The notes under the pieces were generated by a model that saw only the letters and a program-made list of their open reading frames with translations, ran no database searches and had not been told where the DNA came from. From Afipia sp. (GTDB lineage Bacteria > Pseudomonadota > Alphaproteobacteria > Rhizobiales > Xanthobacteraceae): a DNA stretch of 64,000 nt. Within the stretch, counting starts at the first letter, position 1. Every line of letters starts with the position of its first letter. Shown one piece after another: positions 5,037 through 51,127 of this stretch. The position numbers and the translations under genes are program-made. Location: the NCBI GenBank assembly GCA_024508675.1, contig JANINQ010000001.1:186001-250000 (forward strand). Reading direction: 5' to 3'.

Positions 5037-5073
5037 CGACGTCAGGTTACTGAAGGTTCGGTGCGAAGTCGAT

Positions 5074-6000
5074 TTACTTCTTCGCAGGGGCCGCCGGGGC
5101 AGCCTTTGCATCAGGCTTCGCCGCTGGCGCGGCGGCATCGGCCGGCTTGTCGAGACGCTCGACCTTGGCTTCGGTCCGCAGCTTGGTGACGTAGTCAGCC
5201 TGGGCCTTGCGCAGCACGAAGGTCTGGATCTGTCCCTTCACCTGCTCGAAGTCCGGCGGCTTGCGGTCGCGCTTTTCCTCGACCTTGATGACATGCCAGC
5301 CGAACTGCGACTTCACCGGGTCGGAAATCTTGCCCGGCTCCAGCGCGAAAGCGACCGCGGAGAATTCCGGCACCATCTGCTCCTTGGTGAAGAAGCCGAG
5401 ATCGCCGCCATCGGCTGCGCCCGGGTCCTTCGACTTTTCCTTGGCGAGCTTGGCAAAGTCGGCGCCCTTCTCAAGATCGGCCTTGATCGCCTTGGCTTCC
5501 TCTTCGGTCGGAACGAGGATGTGCCGCGCGCGGACTTCCTTGTCGCCGGAGACCTGCTTGGTGGCTTCCTCGTAAACCTTCTTCATGGCGTCGTCGGTGA
5601 CGGCGGCCTTGCCTTCGGTGGCGAGCAGGCTGTCCATCAGCAGGCGGTCGCGGGCGAAGGCGAGCTTCTGCTTGAAGTCTGGCGTGTCGCCGACCTTCTT
5701 GGCCTCAGCGGCCTTGGCGACGATCTTCATGTCGATCAGGAAGGCGATCAGGTTTTCGCGGCGGGTGACCGGGTCCATCTGCTGCAGGCTCGGCCCGAGT
5801 TCTTCCTCGGCCACCGCAAGGTCGCTCTGGCGGATCTCGGCGCCGTTGACCTTGGCGATGACGGCGTTGGCGTCCTGCGCGCGGACCGGCTGGACGGAGC
5901 CAAGGGCAACCGTGAGACAAATCGCAGCAGCGGATGTGAGCAGTCCAAGTCGCGCGCCCAGTCCATGGGAGGAGGACAAGCGGTTCTCGAAGACGGTCAT
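5074..6000 (-). CDS. Periplasmic peptidylprolyl isomerase, parvulin (PpiC/SurA-like)
   Basis: A 308-residue exported cis-trans prolyl isomerase. Residues 1-42 form a signal peptide (basic start, hydrophobic core GLLTSAAAICLTVALG, cleavage near VRAQ). A SurA-N-like helical region follows. The parvulin domain runs from about 155 to 250, with ARHILVPTEEEA, GGDLGFFTKEQMVPEFS and SQFGWHVIKVEE as its conserved blocks. The C-terminus is an Ala/Pro/Lys tail. It probably helps fold outer-membrane or secreted proteins. It is divergent from secA across 439 bases, which makes functional sense because its clients arrive through SecA. Confidence 0.92.
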   Translation of the reverse strand: MTVFENRLSSSHGLGARLGLLTSAAAICLTVALGSVQPVRAQDANAVIAKVNGAEIRQSDLAVAEEELGPSLQQMDPVTRRENLIAFLIDMKIVAKAAEAKKVGDTPDFKQKLAFARDRLLMDSLLATEGKAAVTDDAMKKVYEEATKQVSGDKEVRARHILVPTEEEAKAIKADLEKGADFAKLAKEKSKDPGAADGGDLGFFTKEQMVPEFSAVAFALEPGKISDPVKSQFGWHVIKVEEKRDRKPPDFEQVKGQIQTFVLRKAQADYVTKLRTEAKVERLDKPADAAAPAAKPDAKAAPAAPAKK

Positions 6001-40987: not shown

Positions 40988-41965
40988 TCAGTCGAGCTTG
41001 ACGCCCGCCTCGGTGACCACCTTCTGCCAGCGCACAGTTTCGTCAGCGACCATTTTCGCGAAGGTCGCACCCGTGACATCTGGAACGTCGGAGCCGTTCT
41101 TCTCCCAGGCTTCCTTGATCGTCGCCGTCTGCATGGCCTTCTGCAGTTCCTTGGTCATGCGTTCGATAATCGCCGGCGGCGTGCTCTTGGGCGCGAAGAT
41201 TCCATACCAGGTGGAAACTTCGTATCCCGGCACGCCGGCTTCCGCAGCGGTCGGAACGTCGGGGAAGCTCGGCACCCGCTTCGGAGCCGCGACCGCAAGC
41301 GCGCGCAGCTGTCCGCCGCGAATCTGCGGCGCGGACGAGCCGAGGCCGTCGAACACCAGTGGCACGTGACCGGCGACGAGATCGGCCATCGCCGGCCCTG
41401 CGCCGCGATAGGGCACATGCTGGATGCGCGTCTTGGTGAGGATCTTGAACAGCTCGCCCGCGAGATGGTGGGTCGTTCCCGCACCGGCGGAGCCGTAGTT
41501 CAGCTTGTCGGGATTTGCGCGCAGGAAGGTGATGAACTCGGAAAGGGTTTTCGCTTCCACCTTGCCGGGATTGACCACGATGACCTGCGGAGGCCGCGCG
41601 ATCAGCGCCACCGCGACAAAATCCTTCTGAAGATTGTAGTCGAGATTGGGATAGATCGCCGGAGCGATGGCGTGGTGCGCCGCGCCGACGAAGAACGTGT
41701 AACCATCCGGCGTCGCCTTCGAGGCCTGCGATGCGCCCACGGTGCCGCCCGCGCCTGCGCGGTTTTCAATCAGCACACGGGTTCCGAGCTGATTGTCGAG
41801 TTGTGCGGCAAGCGGACGGGCGAAGGCGTCGGTGCCGCCGCCGGCTGCGAACGGCACGATGAAGGTGATCGGCTTCTCCGGCCAGTTCTGGGCTTGAGCA
41901 TTGCCGGTCACAAGCGTGCCAGCGAGAAGTGCGAGCAAGGCGTAGCGACCAAATTTCAGAGTCAC
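40988..41965 (-). CDS. Tripartite tricarboxylate transporter substrate-binding protein (Bug family)
   Basis: A 325-residue periplasmic binding protein. The signal peptide starts at GTG 41965 (VTLKFGRYALLALLAGTLV, cleavage near AQAQN), supported by GGAGG a few bases upstream. The Bug signature is WPEKPITFIVPFAAGGGTD, followed by IENRAGAGGTVG and LNYGSAGAGTTHHLAGELF. Ligands of the family are usually carboxylates or aromatic acids. The TctA/TctB membrane partners are not adjacent, as is common for the many orphan Bug proteins in this group. Confidence 0.93.
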   Translation of the reverse strand: MTLKFGRYALLALLAGTLVTGNAQAQNWPEKPITFIVPFAAGGGTDAFARPLAAQLDNQLGTRVLIENRAGAGGTVGASQASKATPDGYTFFVGAAHHAIAPAIYPNLDYNLQKDFVAVALIARPPQVIVVNPGKVEAKTLSEFITFLRANPDKLNYGSAGAGTTHHLAGELFKILTKTRIQHVPYRGAGPAMADLVAGHVPLVFDGLGSSAPQIRGGQLRALAVAAPKRVPSFPDVPTAAEAGVPGYEVSTWYGIFAPKSTPPAIIERMTKELQKAMQTATIKEAWEKNGSDVPDVTGATFAKMVADETVRWQKVVTEAGVKLD

Positions 41966-42175
41966 GTCATGTCCTCCCGAATATTGTTTGCGCTGCTGTG
42001 TTGCGGCGCTTTCTTTGCCGGATGTCTCCGGATTGATGATCTTAAACAAGGCGTTGCCCTGAGCGAGGCATCGCACATAACAGTCATGCATCATCACGGA
42101 AGGCGCTGCGCGCGGCAACAGGGTTTTTCACCGGTGTTCCGGTCATCTTGAGAGAACGATGTTACGGAATCGTCT

Positions 42176-42203
42176 GTATGATGAATTATTGACAATATCA
42201 TAC
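42176..42203 (+). promoter_or_regulatory. Predicted NikR operator upstream of the TonB receptor/nickel permease genes
   Basis: GTATGA at 42176-42181 and TCATAC at 42198-42203 are separated by exactly 16 bases. This is the full E. coli-type NikR consensus GTATGA-N16-TCATAC with no mismatch. A TATGAT (42177-42182) and a TTGACA (42189-42194) lie inside it, so bound NikR would overlap promoter elements. NikR normally represses nickel uptake when nickel is plentiful. The two genes downstream are an outer-membrane receptor and an HX4DH permease, which fits. Confidence 0.85.
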
Positions 42204-42204
42204 C

Positions 42205-44547
42205 GTGCATGCGAGCCTGAATGGCCGGTTCAGATCGATATGCGGGGGCATTTCCATTCAGCGGTTGAGTACGAAACGTCGCAGAAAGGCGGCGGGTTGC
42301 GTCCGCGCGCCGCTGACGATCGGTCTGGCGTGTGCAGGACTGATTGCAGTGCCGCAGGTCGCGCTATCGCAGACCGCAGGAGTATCTGCTGAATCGCCGT
42401 TGCCACCCGTCAACGTGACGGCACAGCGTGCCCGGCAGGAGCGCCGCGTTGCGCCACAGACAGTGTCCGCGCCGACGTCAGCCCCTGATGTAACCGAGGA
42501 TGCCAATCAGGCGCCGGTGGCATCCGCGAGCGAAAAGAACGTGAGCGGCGAGGAGGTCAATGCGCGGCCATTTTCACGGCCTGCCGAGGCGCTTGAAGTG
42601 GTGCCGGGTCTCATCATCACCCAGCACAGCGGCGACGGCAAAGCCAACCAGTATTTTCTGCGCGGCTTCAATCTCGACCACGGAACGGATCTGGCGATCA
42701 ATGTCGACGGCATGCCGGTCAACATGCGCACCCATGGTCACGGCCAAGGCTATGCCGATCTGAATTTCCTGATCCCGGAACTGATCGGGTCGGTCAATAT
42801 CCGCAAGGGGCCGTATTTCGCCGATGAAGGCGACTTCTCGTCTGTCGGTGCCGTGCATATCGGCCTGATCGACACCATCCAGAAATCGATGGCACTGGTG
42901 ACGGTCGGCAGCTTCGGTTACCGCCGCGCGCTCGGAATCACATCGACCAAGGTTGGCGATGGCAATCTTCTCGTGGCCGGAGAGGCCAACACCTACAACG
43001 GGCCGTGGGACACTCCGGACAATCTGCGCAAGCTGAACGCTGTCGTGCGATACACCGAAGGCACAGCGGCCAACGGGTTTTCGCTGACCGGGATGGCCTA
43101 TTCCAATCACTGGAATTCGACCGATCAGATTCCGCTCAGGGCAATCGCATCGGGACAGGTCGGCCTCTATGGCGCGCTCGATCCGACTGATGGCGGACGT
43201 TCCGATCGCTTTTCGGTGTCAGGCCGATGGGCGCAGACCGACAAGGATGGATCGTCGAAAGTCAATTTCTACGCGATCAAAAGCTCGCTCGACCTCTACA
43301 ACAACTTCACCTTCTTTCTCGACAATCCGGATCAGGGCGACCAGTTCCACCAGCGCGACGATCGCGTGCTGGCCGGTGTGAATGCGTCCCACACGTTCAA
43401 CACAATGGTCGCGGGCTTGCCGATGCAGACCGAGATCGGATTCCAGAGTCGCTATGACGACATCAAGGTTGCGCTCTCCAACACCTATCAGCGGCAGTTT
43501 CTGTCCGGCACGCGAAACGACAAGGTGAAAGAGGGGAGCGTCGGTCTGTTCATCCAGAACACCGTTCACTGGACAAACTGGATGCGCACCACGCTCGGGT
43601 ATCGCGGCGATTTTTACAACACCAATGTCAATTCGCTTTTGACGCCAGCGAATTCCGGCAATGCCAATGCGTCGATCGGCAGTCCGAAGTTCAGCCTCGT
43701 GGTTGGGCCATTCGCGAAGACCGAGTTCTTCTTCAATGCGGGTGAGGGCTTCCACAGTAATGATGCGCGCGGCGTGACCATCAAGGAATCGCCGTCCGAT
43801 GGCTCACCGGTCGATGCCTCACCATTTCTGGTCAAGACACGCGGCGCAGAGGTCGGCGTCCGCACCAGAATCATTCCGGGCCTCGACAGTTCGCTCAGCC
43901 TGTTCGTGCTGGATTCGGCCTCGGAGATCCTGTTCGTCGGTGACGCAGGCGATACAGAGCCGAGCCGTCCCAGCCGCCGCTACGGCTTCGAGTGGAGCAA
44001 TCACTACAAGCCGGTGTCATGGCTGCAGATCGATGGCGATCTTGCCATGACCCATGCGCGGTTTCGTGGTGACAACTCGGCACAGGCCACCGCTTATGCG
44101 GAACTGGCCGGTTATCCGGCAGTCCAGATCGGCAACGCGCCGGGGAATTACATCCCGGGCGCGCCGAACATGATCGCGTCCGCCGGGATCAGGCTCGGCG
44201 AAAAGACCGGCTGGTTCGGCGCGTTGCGCTATCGCTATTTCGGGCCGCGTCCGCTCACGGAGGACGGTGCGTTCAGGTCCCCGGGAACGGGCCTGCTGAA
44301 TGGGCAGGTCGGCTATCGTTTCGACAATGGCTGGCGTATTCAGCTCGATGCCTACAACCTCACCGACAGCAAGTCCGACCAGATCACTTATGCCTATGGT
44401 TCGCTGCTGAAGACCGATGCACTGTTTGCGCAATGTCATCCGGTCCAGGTTGCGCCGCCTGCGGTTTGCCAGACCGGCGTGATGGACCGCGTTCTGCATC
44501 CGGTCGAACCGTTTGCTGTCCGGCTCACCGTCGCGGGCCAGTTCTGA
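42205..44547 (+). CDS. TonB-dependent outer-membrane receptor, predicted nickel (metallophore) uptake
   Basis: Up to 780 residues. A signal peptide (KRRRKAAG basic region, hydrophobic core LTIGLACAGLIAVP, cleavage near VALSQ) precedes the TonB-box-like PPVNVTAQ. The plug domain runs to about residue 230 with NVDGMPVNMRTHGHGQGYAD, whose clustered histidines could bind metal. A beta-barrel ends in the terminal Phe of VRLTVAGQF. Coordinates use the GTG at 42205, the longest reading; a TTG at 42265 gives a more normal signal peptide. Nickel specificity is inferred from the NikR operator upstream and the permease 63 bases downstream. Confidence 0.92.
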   Translation: MHASLNGRFRSICGGISIQRLSTKRRRKAAGCVRAPLTIGLACAGLIAVPQVALSQTAGVSAESPLPPVNVTAQRARQERRVAPQTVSAPTSAPDVTEDANQAPVASASEKNVSGEEVNARPFSRPAEALEVVPGLIITQHSGDGKANQYFLRGFNLDHGTDLAINVDGMPVNMRTHGHGQGYADLNFLIPELIGSVNIRKGPYFADEGDFSSVGAVHIGLIDTIQKSMALVTVGSFGYRRALGITSTKVGDGNLLVAGEANTYNGPWDTPDNLRKLNAVVRYTEGTAANGFSLTGMAYSNHWNSTDQIPLRAIASGQVGLYGALDPTDGGRSDRFSVSGRWAQTDKDGSSKVNFYAIKSSLDLYNNFTFFLDNPDQGDQFHQRDDRVLAGVNASHTFNTMVAGLPMQTEIGFQSRYDDIKVALSNTYQRQFLSGTRNDKVKEGSVGLFIQNTVHWTNWMRTTLGYRGDFYNTNVNSLLTPANSGNANASIGSPKFSLVVGPFAKTEFFFNAGEGFHSNDARGVTIKESPSDGSPVDASPFLVKTRGAEVGVRTRIIPGLDSSLSLFVLDSASEILFVGDAGDTEPSRPSRRYGFEWSNHYKPVSWLQIDGDLAMTHARFRGDNSAQATAYAELAGYPAVQIGNAPGNYIPGAPNMIASAGIRLGEKTGWFGALRYRYFGPRPLTEDGAFRSPGTGLLNGQVGYRFDNGWRIQLDAYNLTDSKSDQITYAYGSLLKTDALFAQCHPVQVAPPAVCQTGVMDRVLHPVEPFAVRLTVAGQF

Positions 44548-44610
44548 CAAAATGCTTTTCAGCAGTGTGGTATCCGGTATGGTCGCTCGTCACATGAGAT
44601 CGACAGGCTA

Positions 44611-45306
44611 ATGTTCGGAATTCTAGGCCTCGGCTTCCTCCTCGGCATGCAGCATGCACTCGAAGCCGACCATATCGCGGCGGTGTCCAGCATCGCCGCG
44701 CGGCGCTCAAATGTCCGCGACATTGTCAGGCATGGACTGACCTGGGGCCTCGGTCACACCATCACGCTGTTCATTTTCGCGGGTGCTGCGATCCTGCTCG
44801 GCCGCGTGATCCCGGAAAATGTTGCCGCTCCGCTCGAGACCGCGGTGGGGATCATGCTGGTCGGGCTCGGCGCCCATGTGCTGTGGCGGTTGTGGCGCGA
44901 CCGTGTGCATTTCCACCAGCACCGGCATGGCGACGGCACGGCGCATCTGCATGTGCACAGCCATGGTGCTGATGTCGTCCCGCACCGGAATAGCCGTCAC
45001 GATCACGAGCATGGTTTTCAGTGGCGGTCCCTTCTGGTCGGGCTGATGCATGGCATGGCCGGTTCGGCCGCGTTGCTGGTGCTGGTCTCCTCGCAGTTCG
45101 CCAATCCGCTTCATGGCTTGATCTATATTCTGTTGTTCGGAATTGGGTCGATGCTCGGGATGGGCGCATTGTCGGCAGTTGTCGCGGTGCCGCTGGCGGC
45201 ATCCGCGCGGTGGCTGACATGGGCCAACCGCGGACTTCAGGCCGCCGTGGGAATCATCACGATCGCTATCGGCGCGATGACGATCTATTCCACGGCGCTG
45301 GCGTAG
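44611..45306 (+). CDS. Nickel/cobalt permease with HX4DH motif (UreH/NiCoT-like)
   Basis: A 231-residue inner-membrane protein with about six helices. The metal-transport signature HX4DH is H15-ALEA-D20-H21 in the first helix, followed by GLGHTITLFIFAG, a NiCoT-like second motif. A cytoplasmic or periplasmic loop at about residues 107-145 is packed with histidines (HQHRHGDGTAHLHVHSHG). RcnA efflux proteins have a different HALEPGH-type motif, so import is more likely. It lies 63 bases after the TonB receptor gene, under the same NikR operator. Nickel would serve urease or hydrogenase encoded elsewhere. Confidence 0.9.
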   Translation: MFGILGLGFLLGMQHALEADHIAAVSSIAARRSNVRDIVRHGLTWGLGHTITLFIFAGAAILLGRVIPENVAAPLETAVGIMLVGLGAHVLWRLWRDRVHFHQHRHGDGTAHLHVHSHGADVVPHRNSRHDHEHGFQWRSLLVGLMHGMAGSAALLVLVSSQFANPLHGLIYILLFGIGSMLGMGALSAVVAVPLAASARWLTWANRGLQAAVGIITIAIGAMTIYSTALA

Positions 45307-45347
45307 GGTCGGCCATTCCTGCGCGCGGCTTGTGGTGACACGCCGCG

Positions 45348-46193
45348 ATGTGCAGAGTGTCGGCAAAAGAACAGCCGACGGGGAAGGCCTTGGCCCATCA
45401 CAGCGAGATTTATGCGATCCGTTACGCCACAATGACGGGGCGCCAGCCGCATCAGAATTATCTCACGCCTGATATTCATAACGAAGGGACCGACCTCGAC
45501 TATTACGTCTGGCTGATTCGCGGCAGGGACGGCGACATTCTGGTCGATACCGGGTTCAACGATGTGGCGGCGCGTGAGCGGTCACGCAACCTGACCGTCA
45601 ACCCGGCGGATGCCTTGCAGCAATTCGGCGTTGCACCAGGCAGCATCGGCGATGTGGTCATCACGCACCTGCATTACGATCACGCGGGCAATCTCGATCG
45701 TTTTCCCAATGCGCGGTTTCACCTGCAGGACCGCGAAATGCGGTTCGCCACCGGCCGGTGCATGTGCCACGGTCTGCTGCGGCATCCGTTCTCCGTCGAG
45801 GACGTCACGCTGATGGTGCGTCATGTCTACAGCGATCGCGTCGTGTTCCATGACGGCGATGCGGAGATTGCGCCGGGTGTGACGTTGCATCATGTCGGCG
45901 GGCATTCGGATGGCTTGCAGGTGGTGCGTGTGGAAACCGAGCGCGGCCCTGTGGTGCTGGCATCGGACGCCGCGCATTATTACGGCAACATCCATCGCGG
46001 CAATCCGTTCCCCATTCTCTACAACATCGGCGACATGATGCAGGGCTGGCGGACTGTCGAGCGCCTTGCCGGTCATCCCGATCGTGTCATTCCCGGACAC
46101 GATCCGATGGTGCGTGAACTTTATCCGCAGGTGGACACGGTCGCCGATGCTGTCGCCTTACACAAGGTTCCGAAGCGTTCATTCGTCAGGTAG
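45348..46193 (+). CDS. MBL-fold metallohydrolase (N-acyl homoserine lactonase-like)
   Basis: A 281-residue metallo-beta-lactamase-fold hydrolase. The zinc motif is H107-L-H109-Y-D111-H112 (THLHYDHAGN), with further ligands in HHVGGHSDG, ASDAAHYYGN and PGHDP. The spacing is close to AiiA-type quorum-quenching lactonases, but many family members have other substrates. The N-terminal 15 residues may be untranslated if a later start is used. It lies 41 bases after the nickel permease gene; co-transcription is possible but no functional link is evident. Confidence 0.88.
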   Translation: MCRVSAKEQPTGKALAHHSEIYAIRYATMTGRQPHQNYLTPDIHNEGTDLDYYVWLIRGRDGDILVDTGFNDVAARERSRNLTVNPADALQQFGVAPGSIGDVVITHLHYDHAGNLDRFPNARFHLQDREMRFATGRCMCHGLLRHPFSVEDVTLMVRHVYSDRVVFHDGDAEIAPGVTLHHVGGHSDGLQVVRVETERGPVVLASDAAHYYGNIHRGNPFPILYNIGDMMQGWRTVERLAGHPDRVIPGHDPMVRELYPQVDTVADAVALHKVPKRSFVR

Positions 46194-46310
46194 CGGACGT
46201 TCGTCCCGAACAACCAATCTTGATTGCCCGGCCGGAAGGAGCGTTGCTATAAATCCGGCGTGACGCATTCTGCTGCGGTCACGGAGCCGAACGAAGGCGG
46301 CTGAGACTGT

Positions 46311-47183
46311 ATGCACGGCAAGAGCAGCCCCACTGCAAAAAAGACAGCGTTCGTGTTCGCAGGTGGCGGAAGCTTCGGCGCGATTCAGGTCGGGATGATG
46401 CAGGCGCTCGCGGCTCATGGCGTGACCGCCGATCTGGTGGTTGGGTCAAGCGTCGGGGCGATGAACGGCGCTTACTATGCCGGGGCGCCGACGCTCGAGG
46501 GCGTGAGAAAACTCGCTGAAATCTGGCGCGGACTGACACGTCAGGATGTGTTTCCGGTGTCGCTTCGTTCGTTCGCATCGTTCCTCTGGCGGCGGGACTT
46601 CTTGATCTCGCATGATGGCGTGCGCAGGCTGGTTGAGGATCATCTTCCCTACAAGAACCTGGAAGAGGCCACTGTTCCGGTTCATATCGTCACGACCGAC
46701 ATCGTCTCGGGCGAGACAGTGGTGCTGTCGGATGGCTCGGCTGCTGAGGCGATCGTGGCTAGCACGGCCATTCCGGGGGCGTTTGCGCCGGTCGTTTACA
46801 AGAATCGTTTCCTCGCGGACGGCGCGATTTCCAGCAACACACCGATCCGCGTCGCGATTCAGAAGGGCGCGGAGCGGCTCATCATCATGCCGACCGGGTT
46901 TGCCTGCGCGGGACAGAAGCCGCCGGTCGGGGCAGTGGCCACCGCGCTGCATGCACTGACGCTTCTGATCGCCCGGCAAATGACGGTCGAACTGCAGTAT
47001 CTCGAACCCGCCATTGAATACTGCGTGGTGCCGCCGCTGTGCCCGCTGGTCGGCTCGCCCTATGACTTCACGCGGACCGACGATCATATCGCGCGCGCCA
47101 TCAAAAGCACCGAAGCGTGGATTGCCGGCGGCGGCCTTGAGAAGAGCGGCATCCCGGGCGAGATGCAGCCTCATCAGCACTGA
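46311..47183 (+). CDS. Patatin-like phospholipase
   Basis: A 290-residue patatin-family lipid acyl hydrolase. The Ser-Asp dyad is S47 in G45-S-S-V-G49 and D170 in FLADGAISSN. The oxyanion loop is FVFAGGGSFGAIQVG. No signal peptide is seen, so it is cytosolic or membrane-associated. It follows the MBL-fold gene by 117 bases on the same strand. Substrate is not predictable from sequence. Confidence 0.92.
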   Translation: MHGKSSPTAKKTAFVFAGGGSFGAIQVGMMQALAAHGVTADLVVGSSVGAMNGAYYAGAPTLEGVRKLAEIWRGLTRQDVFPVSLRSFASFLWRRDFLISHDGVRRLVEDHLPYKNLEEATVPVHIVTTDIVSGETVVLSDGSAAEAIVASTAIPGAFAPVVYKNRFLADGAISSNTPIRVAIQKGAERLIIMPTGFACAGQKPPVGAVATALHALTLLIARQMTVELQYLEPAIEYCVVPPLCPLVGSPYDFTRTDDHIARAIKSTEAWIAGGGLEKSGIPGEMQPHQH

Positions 47184-47439
47184 TCAGGCGCAGGGTCGGG
47201 GCGCGGCCGGATAGCCGATATTGCTTTGCAGCAAGGATGAGGATCAACTTTACGGGAGCGATATGACGCCATCACGTCAGGCACCCCGATAAACCCGATG
47301 GGCGTGATGTCGATGAATGTCCCAGGTTGATGTATAGTTTCCAGCTATCGGAGCTGTTTGTGACGCGCCATGGACCCGCGTCATGAAAAGCATCAATGTC
47401 CGTTGCCGGGTGATGTCCGGCTTCGCCAGCGAGGTTTTC

Positions 47440-49110
47440 ATGCAGATTTTTGAGCTGATGTTCTCGCCTCGTTTTATTGTCCTGACATTGTGTATCGCTG
47501 TCACCGCGCTTCTGGTTTGCGGTGCGATCTACGATCCGGAAGACATCGTCCTGTTCGCGATCCCCATTGCCATCTTCGGATCGCTGTCGGTGCTCGGCAT
47601 TCACGATATGCTCCAGAAGAGTCATGCGGTCCTGCGCAACTATCCGATCTCGGCGCATATCCGGTTTCTGCTGGAGGAAATCCGGCCCGAGATGCGGCAG
47701 TATTTCTTCGAGAGCGAGAAGGACGGCAAGCCGTTCAGCCGAGACACGCGCGCGGTGGTCTATCAGCGCGCCAAGATGGTGCTCGACAAGCGTCCGTTCG
47801 GCACGCAGGAAGATGTCTATGCCGAGGGCTACGAATGGATGAATCATTCGGTTGCGCCGAAGCCTCCGGCCGACGAGCATTTCCGCGTCACGGTCGGCGG
47901 CCCGGATTGCAGCAAGCCGTATTCGGCCTCGGTGTTCAATATTTCCGCGATGAGCTTTGGTGCGCTCAGTCCCAATGCAGTGCGCGCATTGAATGCTGGC
48001 GCGAAGAAGGGAAATTTCGCTCATGACACCGGAGAGGGCGGCGTCAGTCCCTATCACCGCGAGAATGGCGGCGATCTGATCTGGGAAATCGGCTCGGGGT
48101 ATTTCGGCTGCCGCAATCCGGACGGCACTTTCAATTCCGATCTGTTCGCCAAGGTCGCCAGCGACGATCAGATCAAGATGATCGAACTCAAGGTCAGCCA
48201 GGGCGCGAAGCCGGGCCATGGCGGCGTGCTGCCGGCTGCGAAAGTCTCCGAGGAGATTTCGCGCATTCGCGGCGTGGCCATGGGCGAGGATTGTATTTCA
48301 CCTGCCTATCATCGCGCGTTCTCCACACCGATCGAGATGATGCAGTTCATCGGTGAGATGCGGCGGCTGTCGGGCGGCAAGCCTGTGGGTTTCAAGCTCT
48401 GCATTGGCCATCGCTGGGAGTTCCTTGCGATCTGCAAGGCGATGGTCAAGACCGGCATCTATCCCGATTTCATCGTGGTCGACGGCAATGAAGGCGGCAC
48501 CGGCGCTGCGCCGGCGGAGTTCATGGATCATCTTGGCATGCCGATGCGCGAGGGTGTCAACTTCGTCCACAACGCGCTGATCGGCATCAATGCACGCGAC
48601 CGCATTCGCATCGGCGCGGCAGGCAAGATCGCAACCGGCTTCGATGTCGCCCGCGCCATGGCGCTCGGCGCGGACTGGTGCAATTCGGCGCGGGGCTTCA
48701 TGTTTGCGCTCGGCTGCATCCAGTCGCTGAGCTGCCATACCGATCGCTGCCCGACCGGCGTGACGACGCAGGACCCGACGCGCAACCGCGCGCTGGTCGT
48801 TCCGGACAAGACCACCCGCGTCTACAACTATCACCGCGCGACCCTGCATGCACTGGCGGAGCTGATTGCCGCGTCAGGATTGAGCCACCCGCAGGAAATC
48901 AAGCCGATTCACTTCTCGCACCGAATCTCCGCGACGGACGTTCTGTCCTTTGCGCGGCTTTATCCCGAGCTTCGTCCCGGTGAATTGCTGGAGGGTCACG
49001 TCGACAGTCCGCGCTTCCATGCCTGGGCCTTTGCGCAGGCGGAATCGTTTGCGCCGCTCGCGACGGCTTCGCCGTCCGCGCCGGTCGTCGCAGCCGTCGC
49101 TGCGCAGTGA
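47440..49110 (+). CDS. Membrane-anchored FMN-binding glutamate synthase-like protein
   Basis: A 556-residue protein. Two hydrophobic helices at the N-terminus (FIVLTLCIAVTALLVCG and ILFAIPIAIFGSLSVLG-like) anchor a GltB-type FMN/Fe-S barrel (SFGALSPNAVRALNAGAKKGNF, SQGAKPGHGGVLPAAKV, VVDGNEGGTGAAPAEFMD). The cluster cysteines lie in CIQSLSCHTDRCPTGVTTQ. There is no glutaminase domain, so it is not a complete glutamate synthase; the electron donor and substrate are unknown. The ATG at 47440 is preferred over 47383 and 47413 because GAGG lies five bases upstream. Confidence 0.88.
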   Translation: MQIFELMFSPRFIVLTLCIAVTALLVCGAIYDPEDIVLFAIPIAIFGSLSVLGIHDMLQKSHAVLRNYPISAHIRFLLEEIRPEMRQYFFESEKDGKPFSRDTRAVVYQRAKMVLDKRPFGTQEDVYAEGYEWMNHSVAPKPPADEHFRVTVGGPDCSKPYSASVFNISAMSFGALSPNAVRALNAGAKKGNFAHDTGEGGVSPYHRENGGDLIWEIGSGYFGCRNPDGTFNSDLFAKVASDDQIKMIELKVSQGAKPGHGGVLPAAKVSEEISRIRGVAMGEDCISPAYHRAFSTPIEMMQFIGEMRRLSGGKPVGFKLCIGHRWEFLAICKAMVKTGIYPDFIVVDGNEGGTGAAPAEFMDHLGMPMREGVNFVHNALIGINARDRIRIGAAGKIATGFDVARAMALGADWCNSARGFMFALGCIQSLSCHTDRCPTGVTTQDPTRNRALVVPDKTTRVYNYHRATLHALAELIAASGLSHPQEIKPIHFSHRISATDVLSFARLYPELRPGELLEGHVDSPRFHAWAFAQAESFAPLATASPSAPVVAAVAAQ

Positions 49111-49114
49111 GAAG

Positions 49115-51127
49115 CTAGAACTCGCCGTGCAGGCGGCCTGAAAAGATCGATACCGGTCCGCGGTCCGCGTTGTAGGCCGGGTTCACGATCAGCTGGTAAT
49201 CGGCTGTGAAGGTGAAGGCTTTGTTGAGCGCGAGGGCATAGTACGTTTCGAGAATGCGCTCGTTGCCATAGTTGAGGCGGCCATCCCCGATCAGCAGGCC
49301 CTTGCCGCCTGCGGCGAGAAAATCGCGATGCGCGCCGGACAGGCCATTGATGGCGCCGCCCAGTGCAAAGGTATCGGTTGGCCGGCCCCAGTAGCTGCCC
49401 TTGACCGACACGCCTCCGGACGCGCTGCGGTCGATATCGGTGAACGAGAGAATTTCGTTCTGGCCATCGTTCCAGCTTGCGCGTGCGAAGATCCCTACAT
49501 CGGTCGCGATCTGCTGCTCGCCATTGACGTAGAACCCATACTTCAATCGTTCGCGCCGTTCGCCTATGACGATATCGTTGATGTCGAGACCGGGGTTCGC
49601 GGTGCTGATGCCGAGCACGTCGCGATAGCTTGCGGTATTGCCCTTGTTGGCGAACACGCCGACACGCAGCTTGCCGGGCTGGCTGAAGATGGTGTGGCGT
49701 TCCTCGAACTCGACCACAGCACCGCCAGACTTGAAGGTGAGCACATCGCTGTTGGGGGCGGACGGCACCTGGAACGCGCCGGCGCGGATCGCCCAGTCCT
49801 TGCGGTTGAGTTCGACCACAGCGCCACGTGTGTAGCCGGGCAGATCGGCCGGGAAATCATAGGCCGCGGAAGCCCATATCGCCCAGTTCATGAAGTCGGC
49901 GCGCGGGTCCTTCGCGTAGGAATTGCCGTCGAAGTAGTCGCCCACGGCAAAGCGGCCGACCGTCACCGTGATGCGGTCGATATCGCGCTTGCCCGGCAGC
50001 TGATTGGCAGCGTCGGCCACCTCTTCCTGTTCGCCGCCGAGGCCGAACGTCTGCCGGAAGAAGTAGCGCTGCGCGCGAAACTTCGGATATTCGCCGCCAC
50101 CCTTCTGCGCTTCGCCGTTTGGAAAGCCGGCAATGCCGAGCGTGCTGCCGATACCGAATCCCTGCGCGAGTTCGGGATTGAAGTAGAACTCGCCGCCTTC
50201 CCACAACCGCCAGCCGAGAAATGCGCCGACGGTCCAGGTCTCGCGTGTGCGTCCGGCACCGGGCAGACTGTTGGGTCCTTGATAGGGCGCGCGGAACGAT
50301 GGATAGCCCTGCGTGATCAGCGTGGTCTGTCCATGCACATTCCAGTCTGTCGATTCCGGAAGTGCAGGTGCCTTGAGCGCAGCGCCGCCTGTGGCCCATG
50401 GCGGCGTATCCCAGAGCCGGTAGTTGAGACCGACCTTGACGGTGTGAATTTTCGGATCGACCGCGACGTCGGGCAGCGGCACATCGCCAAGGCCGTACGT
50501 TCTCGCGCCGAGATCGATATAATTGTATTCGACCTTGCCGCTCCAGTTGCCGCCGAGGGCGACCTCGAGGCCTGTGCCTGCGACCCAGCCGAGATGCACG
50601 CGCGATTTGTTGCCGACGACATCGCCGGCCGGATCGTTGAGATCGACGCGGGTGCGTCCCCAGGCGAGGCCGCCGGTGACATAAGGCAGCCAGGTCCCGA
50701 TCGCGTAACCCACGCGCCCGCGCACGGTGCTGAAATAATCGAACGTGGTGTTGAAGGGCGCCGGCACCAGTTTGGGGCGATCCAGCGGACTCGTGAACGA
50801 GATGTCGGCTTCGACGCCCAGCAGCCAGTTGTTCTGAAGCTGGACATTGTAGCCGGCCTGAAAGCCGCCGATCAGCCCGGTGATGCTGTGGGGGAAGAAG
50901 ACCCCCTGTTGCGGCAGCGGATTGGTTCCCGGGCCGAAGCTGCCGCCACCGTAACCAGCATGCCCGCCGACATAGAGCCCGCTCCAGTCGAAGATCGGCG
51001 CAGTCCGCGGTGCTTTGACAGGAATCGCCGCGTCAGCCGCACGTGCGACATCCGCCGACACCGCTCCCAGCGCCAGTCCCGCGACAGCGCTTTTCAAAAG
51101 AAATATGCGGTGTTTGATCAGAGGCAT
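49115..51127 (-). CDS. Fused Omp25-like / OprB-like porin (carbohydrate porin family)
   Basis: A 670-residue outer-membrane protein. The signal peptide is cleaved near DVARAADA. Residues ~45-240 form an Omp25/Omp31-type 8-stranded barrel (FDWSGLYVGGHAGYGGGSFG ... VGYAIGTWLPYVTGGLAWG ... HTVKVGLNYRL). Residues ~265-670 form an OprB-type porin (NVHGQTTLITQGYPSFRAPY ... WRLWEGGEFYFNPELAQGFG) ending in a terminal Phe (SGRLHGEF). OprB barrels admit sugars. I know similar long proteins in rhizobia only in outline. The gene reads leftward and converges on the glutamate-synthase-like gene. Confidence 0.88.
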   Translation of the reverse strand: MPLIKHRIFLLKSAVAGLALGAVSADVARAADAAIPVKAPRTAPIFDWSGLYVGGHAGYGGGSFGPGTNPLPQQGVFFPHSITGLIGGFQAGYNVQLQNNWLLGVEADISFTSPLDRPKLVPAPFNTTFDYFSTVRGRVGYAIGTWLPYVTGGLAWGRTRVDLNDPAGDVVGNKSRVHLGWVAGTGLEVALGGNWSGKVEYNYIDLGARTYGLGDVPLPDVAVDPKIHTVKVGLNYRLWDTPPWATGGAALKAPALPESTDWNVHGQTTLITQGYPSFRAPYQGPNSLPGAGRTRETWTVGAFLGWRLWEGGEFYFNPELAQGFGIGSTLGIAGFPNGEAQKGGGEYPKFRAQRYFFRQTFGLGGEQEEVADAANQLPGKRDIDRITVTVGRFAVGDYFDGNSYAKDPRADFMNWAIWASAAYDFPADLPGYTRGAVVELNRKDWAIRAGAFQVPSAPNSDVLTFKSGGAVVEFEERHTIFSQPGKLRVGVFANKGNTASYRDVLGISTANPGLDINDIVIGERRERLKYGFYVNGEQQIATDVGIFARASWNDGQNEILSFTDIDRSASGGVSVKGSYWGRPTDTFALGGAINGLSGAHRDFLAAGGKGLLIGDGRLNYGNERILETYYALALNKAFTFTADYQLIVNPAYNADRGPVSIFSGRLHGEF

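What the first reader, a model, noticed from the sequence alone, without database searches (positions are those of the whole stretch)
42176..45306. Perfect NikR operator ahead of a TonB receptor and an HX4DH permease: a two-membrane nickel uptake operon
GTATGA-N16-TCATAC matches the E. coli NikR consensus with no mismatch. A fixed 12-base pattern is expected about 0.004 times in 64 kb of random sequence. It lies directly before a TonB-dependent receptor with a histidine cluster in its plug (MRTHGHGQGY). A permease with HX4DH and a histidine-rich loop follows 63 bases after the receptor. Energised outer-membrane nickel uptake is known in a few bacteria (for example Helicobacter) and predicted in others. 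Here the three parts sit together, so a nickel-metallophore or nickel-complex importer is a strong hypothesis.
Basis: partly seen in the sequence, partly recalled or inferred. Interest (0 to 1): 0.72.

Follow-up and report, generated by a model that had tools for sequence, protein, structure and literature searches.

The report
NikR-controlled two-membrane nickel uptake operon
A bacterium related to Afipia carries a nickel-sensing DNA switch in front of an outer-membrane receptor and an inner-membrane permease, most likely a nickel-import system feeding its urease; it fits a family already predicted in print, now with much firmer comparative evidence.

Summary
GTATGA-N16-TCATAC at 42176-42203 is the only perfect match in this 4.44 Mb Afipia-like genome. 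It precedes a TonB-dependent receptor and, 63 bp after that, a NicO/UreH-type permease.

The genome has a nikR elsewhere, with E. coli-type DNA-reading strand and nickel ligands. In 198 family genomes there are 64 perfect sites and no control hits: 42 lie upstream of a receptor orthologue, 9 more beside nikR, 13 elsewhere. Of 65 receptors, 52 of 59 in nikR genomes keep the operator (at most one mismatch), against 1 of 6 without nikR. In one congener the receptor is missing at the syntenic place and the operator fronts the permease.

Best reading: nickel-NikR represses an operon importing a nickel species across both membranes, here for urease (no NiFe hydrogenase found).

Papers already list the class: Bll6948, RPA_4757, Daro_3944, pHCG3_081. 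The plug histidine motif is no proven nickel signature. Binding, regulation and transport are untested. New member of a known kind.

The parts
42176..42203 (.). NikR operator GTATGA-N16-TCATAC, perfect dyad
   Evidence: conserved ahead of receptor orthologues
42189..42194 (+). TTGACA inside the operator spacer, probable -35 box (TTGAC in this register in 27 of 42 perfect sites upstream of family receptors)
   Evidence: the promoter scan found no match of both hexamers, so the promoter is inferred
42265..44547 (+). TonB-dependent receptor (Plug + barrel), 760 aa from TTG 42265 (alternative start GTG 42205); TonB-box-like LPPVNVTA at residues 46-53 (recalled motif)
   Evidence: AlphaFold mean pLDDT 85.9, pTM 0.84; closest solved folds PqqU/YncD
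44611..45306 (+). NicO / UreH-type nickel permease, 231 aa, HX4DH at residues 15-21 and a histidine-rich stretch (12 His in residues 100-134)

Best explanation
This is a NikR-repressed nickel-uptake operon that spans both membranes. When cytoplasmic nickel is sufficient, Ni-NikR (encoded elsewhere, G000:C21) binds the 28-bp operator, which overlaps the probable -35 box, and blocks transcription. When nickel is scarce, the receptor is made and, energised by TonB-ExbBD, brings a nickel species (probably a chelate) into the periplasm. The UreH-type permease then carries Ni(II) into the cytoplasm. In this genome the likely user is urease. Shown by comparative sequence evidence: operator, regulator, conservation, co-absence of nikR and operator, and linkage to other nickel transporters. 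Inferred: repression by nickel, the direction and substrate of transport, and the chelate.
For: The only perfect operator in the genome. nikR present; its first ten residues MQRVTITLDD are identical to E. coli NikR and the residues aligned with E. coli His76, His87, His89 and Cys95 (ligand roles recalled) are all kept. 64 perfect sites in 198 family genomes against 0 for the reversed control; 42 of 64 lie 62 to 1328 bp upstream of a receptor hit, 9 more beside nikR. Operator with at most 1 mismatch in 52 of 59 receptors in nikR genomes and 1 of 6 in genomes without nikR (Fisher p 5e-4, not corrected for relatedness); the no-nikR, no-operator state needs at least 3 changes on the tree. nikR lies within 3 kb of the receptor in 34 of 65 receptor genomes. 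The permease alone stands behind an operator in G168. NiCoT lies upstream of the receptor in 15 named loci, 13 of them titled Bradyrhizobium, 1.05 to 1.18 kb away, with the best operator-like site about 1.1 kb upstream too (order operator-NiCoT-receptor read directly in L127), and alone behind a second site in G024; a DUF4198-CbiM pair stands behind a site in G084. Neighbours in single relatives include HypB, UreF and a hydrogenase small subunit; on pHCG3 of A. carboxidovorans the order is hypD-hypE-hypB-permease-nikR-receptor, with a 1-mismatch operator between the last two. nikR-NiCoT-receptor in Paraburkholderia, nikR-receptor in Methylomagnum and Polymorphobacter. Here ureC is present with ureA- and ureB-like ORFs; no NiFe hydrogenase large subunit, no NikA over cut-off and no HupE/UreJ were found.
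Against: No expression, binding or transport data. 7 of 59 receptors in nikR genomes lack a site with at most 1 mismatch (G133 with 2, G043 with 3, G100, G095, G027, G163, G114b; the nikR match of G095 is itself partial). G075 keeps a perfect site though no nikR was found in its draft. Receptors persist in genomes without nikR and operator, so regulation and function can part. 13 of 64 perfect sites are near neither receptor nor nikR; I inspected 4 of them, of which 3 precede nickel-type permeases and 1 looks like chance. The plug histidine motif is no proven nickel signature. The permease scores far below NiCoT models and nearest to an RcnA efflux model, all under cut-off. Two Afipia-group receptor loci lack the permease within the fetched stretch (L116, L106).
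Confidence: 0.85

Rival explanations
1. The operon is NikR-controlled but its physiological cargo is cobalt, or nickel and cobalt without preference.
For: PMC3400609 lists this class as 'Nickel, Cobalt'; a UreH gene next to B12 genes is reported in Moritella (PMC2667541 passage).
Against: The regulator family is nickel-responsive; the metal-related neighbours that I identified in relatives are urease, hydrogenase, hyp and nickel-transporter genes, though I did not search for B12 genes; urease genes are present here.
Confidence: 0.07
2. The permease is an RcnA-type exporter that removes excess nickel, merely sharing an operon with the receptor.
For: Its best NCBIfam match is the nickel/cobalt efflux subfamily (37 bits, cut-off 195); several database names say RcnA.
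Against: NikR represses at high nickel, the wrong logic for an exporter; HoxN-type importers take the permease's place behind the same operator in relatives; an 86% identical protein is named nickel transporter UreH, and UreH of R. palustris is reported to confer nickel import (PMC11247825 passage citing Eitinger 2005).
Confidence: 0.05
3. The receptor imports some other small molecule (it is structurally closest to the PQQ receptor) and NikR control is secondary.
For: Top solved-structure matches are PqqU/YncD; the best NCBIfam model is a hemoglobin/transferrin receptor family, under cut-off; two more distant homologues have no annotated nickel neighbours.
Against: Those models are far under cut-off (PqqU 38 against 1200 bits, hemoglobin/transferrin 49 against 324); association with nikR and nickel permeases reaches Alpha-, Beta- and Gammaproteobacteria.
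Confidence: 0.06
4. The dyad is a chance match or belongs to another regulator.
For: One site only in the genome.
Against: 0 control matches against 64 sites in 198 genomes and co-occurrence with nikR (54 of 58 operator genomes have nikR, 37 of 140 others do).
Confidence: 0.01

Closest known systems
Predicted Ni/Co TonB-dependent transporters Bll6948, RPA_4757, pHCG3_081, Daro_3944, Daro_1684 (cluster 987 of PMC3400609; Bll6948 and Daro_3944 marked as predicted and credited to Rodionov et al. 2006 in PMC7142613; PMC11247825 words them as known)
   Same: The single homologue on pHCG3 of A. carboxidovorans is 65% identical over 93% and sits beside nikR and the same permease type; orthologues in Bradyrhizobium and an R. 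palustris strain carry the same operator.
   Different: Here nikR is not adjacent and the receptor-permease pair has moved as a block; no hydrogenase was found in this genome. Identity to Bll6948, RPA_4757 and the Daro proteins was not measured.
H. pylori FrpB4 / FecA3
   Same: NikR-regulated outer-membrane receptors; FrpB4 is described as a nickel transporter (passages of PMC7055735 and PMC2771747).
   Different: PMC2771747 places FrpB4 in its region I, apart from the cluster of predicted Ni/Co receptors in region VIII; no direct sequence comparison was made here.
P. aeruginosa CntO (named among nickel receptors in PMC11247825)
   Same: Outer-membrane receptor tied to nickel.
   Different: Not compared by sequence here; no metallophore genes were looked for.
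UreH nickel permeases (NicO superfamily)
   Same: PF03824 match, HX4DH, 231 aa, 86% identity to a protein named nickel transporter UreH.
   Different: Paired with an outer-membrane receptor under one NikR operator.
E. coli nikABCDE-NikR
   Same: Same operator sequence (PMC7055735 passage) and identical first ten NikR residues.
   Different: The E. coli target is an ABC importer; no NikA over cut-off here.

Membership tests
NikR regulon (E. coli-type operator) | GTATGA-N16-TCATAC dyad in the promoter region | tested here: met
NikR regulon (E. coli-type operator) | nikR encoded in the genome with intact DNA-reading strand and metal ligands | tested here: met
NikR regulon (E. coli-type operator) | operator conserved ahead of orthologues and absent where nikR is absent | tested here: met
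   52 of 59 against 1 of 6; G075 is an exception
NikR regulon (E. coli-type operator) | nickel-dependent binding and repression | not testable with these tools
   needs EMSA and reporter assays
Predicted Ni TonB-dependent transporters (Bll6948 group) | homology to the group | tested here: met
   65% identity over 93% to the only hit on pHCG3; that this gene is pHCG3_081 is inferred from its being the only hit there; Bll6948 itself not compared
Predicted Ni TonB-dependent transporters (Bll6948 group) | NikR control or nickel-gene neighbours | tested here: met
   operator in the window; relatives
Predicted Ni TonB-dependent transporters (Bll6948 group) | nickel transport shown | not testable with these tools
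   no transport data
UreH | NicO-family protein with HX4DH, close homology to a protein named UreH | tested here: met
   the name is a database label
NiCoT (HoxN/HupN/NixA) | TIGR00802 over cut-off | tested here: not met
   20.4 bits, cut-off 333
PqqU receptor | NF041535 over cut-off | tested here: not met
   38.1 bits, cut-off 1200

The most novel reading that the evidence does not exclude
The receptor-permease pair is a portable nickel-uptake cassette that carries its own NikR operator. A widespread clade of receptors, paired interchangeably with UreH, HoxN-type or other nickel permeases across Proteobacteria, takes up a still unidentified nickel chelate (a natural nickelophore or soil ligand) to supply urease or hydrogenase.
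Probability: 0.45. Interest if true: 0.6.

Novelty: new member of a known kind. Interest (0 to 1): 0.4.

Why it matters
Energised outer-membrane nickel uptake has been demonstrated in few bacteria (H. pylori FrpB4 is the case I saw described); for soil Alphaproteobacteria I saw only predictions. The loci here give ready natural experiments: matched absences of nikR and operator, a congener whose operator fronts the permease alone, and swaps of permease type. They make the nickel assignment of a large receptor clade directly testable and narrow the search for its ligand.

Tried and rejected
Plug histidines as a nickel signature: not upheld. H121, H139, H157 and H159 are invariant in 65 of 65 receptors, but the scan patterns select for part of this region, the motif stays in receptors whose genomes lack nikR, and it is also in L221 and L222, where the annotated features within about 5 kb show no nickel gene. 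The evidence is thin: two examples, an incomplete gene table, and L221 reads much like the NiCoT-linked L223.

A larger NikR regulon in this genome: not found. Sites with two mismatches are at background, and none with up to 3 mismatches lies within the 3.2 kb around nikR (the best in the 0.7 kb around its start has 5).

A textbook sigma-70 promoter: the scan of 41900-45500 found none. The -35 role of TTGACA is inference.

Coordinates of the predicted model were not available in the Python box, so distances between histidines could not be measured.

Rodionov 2006 and Schauer 2008 could not be read; what I say of Rodionov 2006 comes from papers that cite it. PMC5343134, a survey of regulons, does not mention NikR.

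Script slip: loci L175, L186 and L195 have no upstream sequence and were sliced wrongly; L161 and L199 have under 340 bp. So the usable number is 75 of 80, of which 30 have a perfect site and 8 have one mismatch; L161 is perfect too.

In one search and the tree, 65 of the 70 receptor hits were used. Left out: two fragments of a second G043 copy, the second G189 fragment, G152 and G175 (both partial hits at contig ends).
Full report
What is there. The 28-mer GTATGATGAATTATTGACAATATCATAC lies at 42176-42203. It is the only perfect GTATGA-N16-TCATAC in the 4,435,814-base genome. At up to two mismatches there are 26 places (this one included), against 28 for the reversed control, so degenerate sites are background. 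Downstream are a TonB-dependent receptor (Plug and barrel domains over Pfam cut-off) and, 63 bases later, a 231-aa NicO-family permease. The permease has HALEADH (HX4DH) at residues 15-21 and 12 histidines in residues 100-134. The operator spacer contains TTGACA at 42189-42194; TTGAC stands in the same register in 27 of the 42 perfect sites upstream of family receptors. If this is the -35 box, transcription starts near 42224 and the start codon is TTG 42265 rather than GTG 42205. That is inference; the promoter scan found no full match.

The organism. 

The regulator. One NikR C-terminal domain is found in the genome, at G000:C21:500910, in a 151-aa ORF. It aligns over residues 1-133 with E. 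coli NikR (PDB 1q5v; 2hzv, recalled as the DNA complex, has the same sequence). The first ten residues MQRVTITLDD, which include the base-reading strand (recalled), are identical, and the residues aligned with the four Ni ligands (His76, His87, His89, Cys95 by E. coli numbering, recalled) are all kept. PMC7055735 (passages read) gives GTATGA-N16-TCATAC as the E. coli operator. NikR and operator therefore match in expected specificity.

Conservation in the family. In 198 genomes drawn from the family, the receptor (E up to 1e-60) is in 65, nikR in 91 and a perfect operator in 58, 64 sites in all, with 0 reversed-control hits in all 198. Of the 64 sites, 42 lie upstream of a receptor hit (62 to 1328 bp; 24 of these also next to nikR), 9 lie next to nikR only, and 13 elsewhere. 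Of the 13, I inspected four: one precedes the UreH-type permease (G168), one a NiCoT (G024, operator 5064-5091, match from 5135), one a DUF4198-CbiM pair, taken as NikK-NikM (G084); one (G144) looks like chance. nikR is present in 54 of 58 operator genomes and 37 of 140 others. nikR lies within 3 kb of the receptor in 34 of the 65 receptor genomes.

Co-absence. I read the upstream region of 65 of the 70 receptor hits (the five left out are fragments or partial). An operator with at most one mismatch is present in 52 of 59 receptors in nikR genomes (41 perfect, 11 with one mismatch) and in 1 of 6 in genomes without nikR (Fisher p 5e-4, without correction for kinship). On the receptor tree the state 'no nikR, no operator' needs at least three changes, forced by well-supported branches (quick tree). 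The exception G075 is a draft genome; its receptor row is identical to that of G024, which has nikR. Seven receptors in nikR genomes have no such site, which counts against a strict rule.

Beyond the family. They overlap with the family set: contig lengths show that L134, L135, L154 and L158 are G150, G093, G179 and G181. Of 75 loci with usable upstream sequence, 30 have a perfect site and 8 one mismatch. Within the fetched stretch (score over 45 bits), nikR is in 23 of 80, a NiCoT in 20 and the UreH-type permease in 3. In 15 of the 80, 13 of them titled Bradyrhizobium, a NiCoT of 76% or more identity lies 1.05 to 1.18 kb upstream of the receptor match, and the best operator-like site lies about 1.1 kb upstream too; the order operator, NiCoT, receptor was read directly in L127. 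Most loci outside the family lack the exact operator, but nikR is often still next to the receptor; L184 and L189 have GTATGCA...TGCATAC dyads there. Plasmid records, whose gene tables are incomplete, show nikR-NiCoT-receptor (Paraburkholderia), nikR-receptor (Methylomagnum; Polymorphobacter), receptor-NiCoT (Novosphingobium) and a NiCoT about 4 kb upstream (C. necator pHG1). Two more distant homologues have no nickel gene among the annotated neighbours (Sphingobium, Adhaeribacter).

The permease belongs to the switch. In congener G168, alignment with the window runs on both sides of the receptor but not through it (window 40992-41979 and 44610-49677). The operator in that gap lies 49 bp before the permease start. 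A second operator stands 151 bp before the G168 receptor on another contig. So the permease is NikR-linked in its own right.

A moved module. In congener G123, permease, receptor, operator, nikR and two further ORFs (422 aa and 700 aa) are contiguous. The own nikR locus has the same two ORFs (422 and 697 aa; the first matches Peptidase_M20) and matches G123 on both sides (L115 263-3428 and 6843-8588 to L110 3861-7007 and 7249-9002) but lacks the 3.4 kb between. That block is what sits in the window. The own nikR has no operator-like site in front. The direction of the move is inferred from the adjacency in other genera.

Nickel use. The genome has ureC with ureA- and ureB-like ORFs before it (by eye). 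No NiFe hydrogenase large subunit, no NikA over cut-off and no HupE/UreJ were found; one other NicO protein exists, in a different setting. Urease is the likely client. Neighbours in single relatives include HypB, UreF and a hydrogenase small subunit, and the hyp cluster on pHCG3.

Receptor structure. The AlphaFold2 model from 65 receptors has mean pLDDT 85.9 and pTM 0.84. The closest solved folds are PqqU and YncD (18% identity), then siderophore receptors; the copper receptor OprC ranks lower. It is an ordinary TonB-dependent transporter fold. H121, H139, H157, H159 and H497 are invariant in 65 of 65, but the plug motif also occurs in homologues without known nickel linkage, and L218, which is nikR- and NiCoT-linked, reads RSNAHGQGY there. 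The motif does not identify the metal.

What is already known. PMC3400609 (passages read) groups Bll6948, Daro_3944, RPA_4757, pHCG3_081 and Daro_1684 as nickel/cobalt receptors. PMC7142613 (passages) marks Bll6948 and Daro_3944 as predicted and credits Rodionov et al. 2006. PMC2771747 (passages) has a cluster of predicted nickel and cobalt receptors. PMC11247825 (passages) words Bll6948 and Daro_3944 as known nickel receptors and says that recombinant UreH of R. palustris confers nickel import. Most subscription papers are outside that library.

Judgement. The chemical form of the nickel is open. It is a new member of a predicted class with unusually clear comparative evidence, not a new kind of system.

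Noticed in passing
G000:C6:316342-317220 (L213): A second NicO-family protein with a very long histidine-rich loop, next to a gene that looks like DUF1007 by eye; resembles the ZevAB zinc system (recalled).
   Followed up: partly
L211 4407-5105: The UreH-type permease of A. carboxidovorans pHCG3 is annotated as a sulfite exporter TauE/SafE family protein although it matches NicO over cut-off; likely a misleading name in public records.
   Followed up: yes
L120 5982-7088: In L120, and by look in L123, a lactonase-type seven-bladed beta-propeller protein (PF10282 in L120), not a permease, follows the NikR-linked receptor; its role is unknown. None of the 80 named loci had a match to it.
   Followed up: partly
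L184 3265, L189 2345: Between nikR and receptor in two distant genomes stands a GTATGCA...TGCATAC dyad, a likely variant NikR operator.
   Followed up: partly
window 45348-46193: A metallo-beta-lactamase-fold gene starts 41 bp after the permease; the alignments run through it in L111 but leave it out in L112, so it may come and go among congeners.
   Followed up: partly
window 49115-51127 (- strand): A 670-aa outer-membrane protein seems, by eye, to join an OmpA-like barrel to a carbohydrate-porin-like part.
   Followed up: no
L137 (record titled Frankia sp. RB7): Carries a Bradyrhizobium-like operator-NiCoT-receptor locus; the record is probably mislabelled or contaminated.
   Followed up: no
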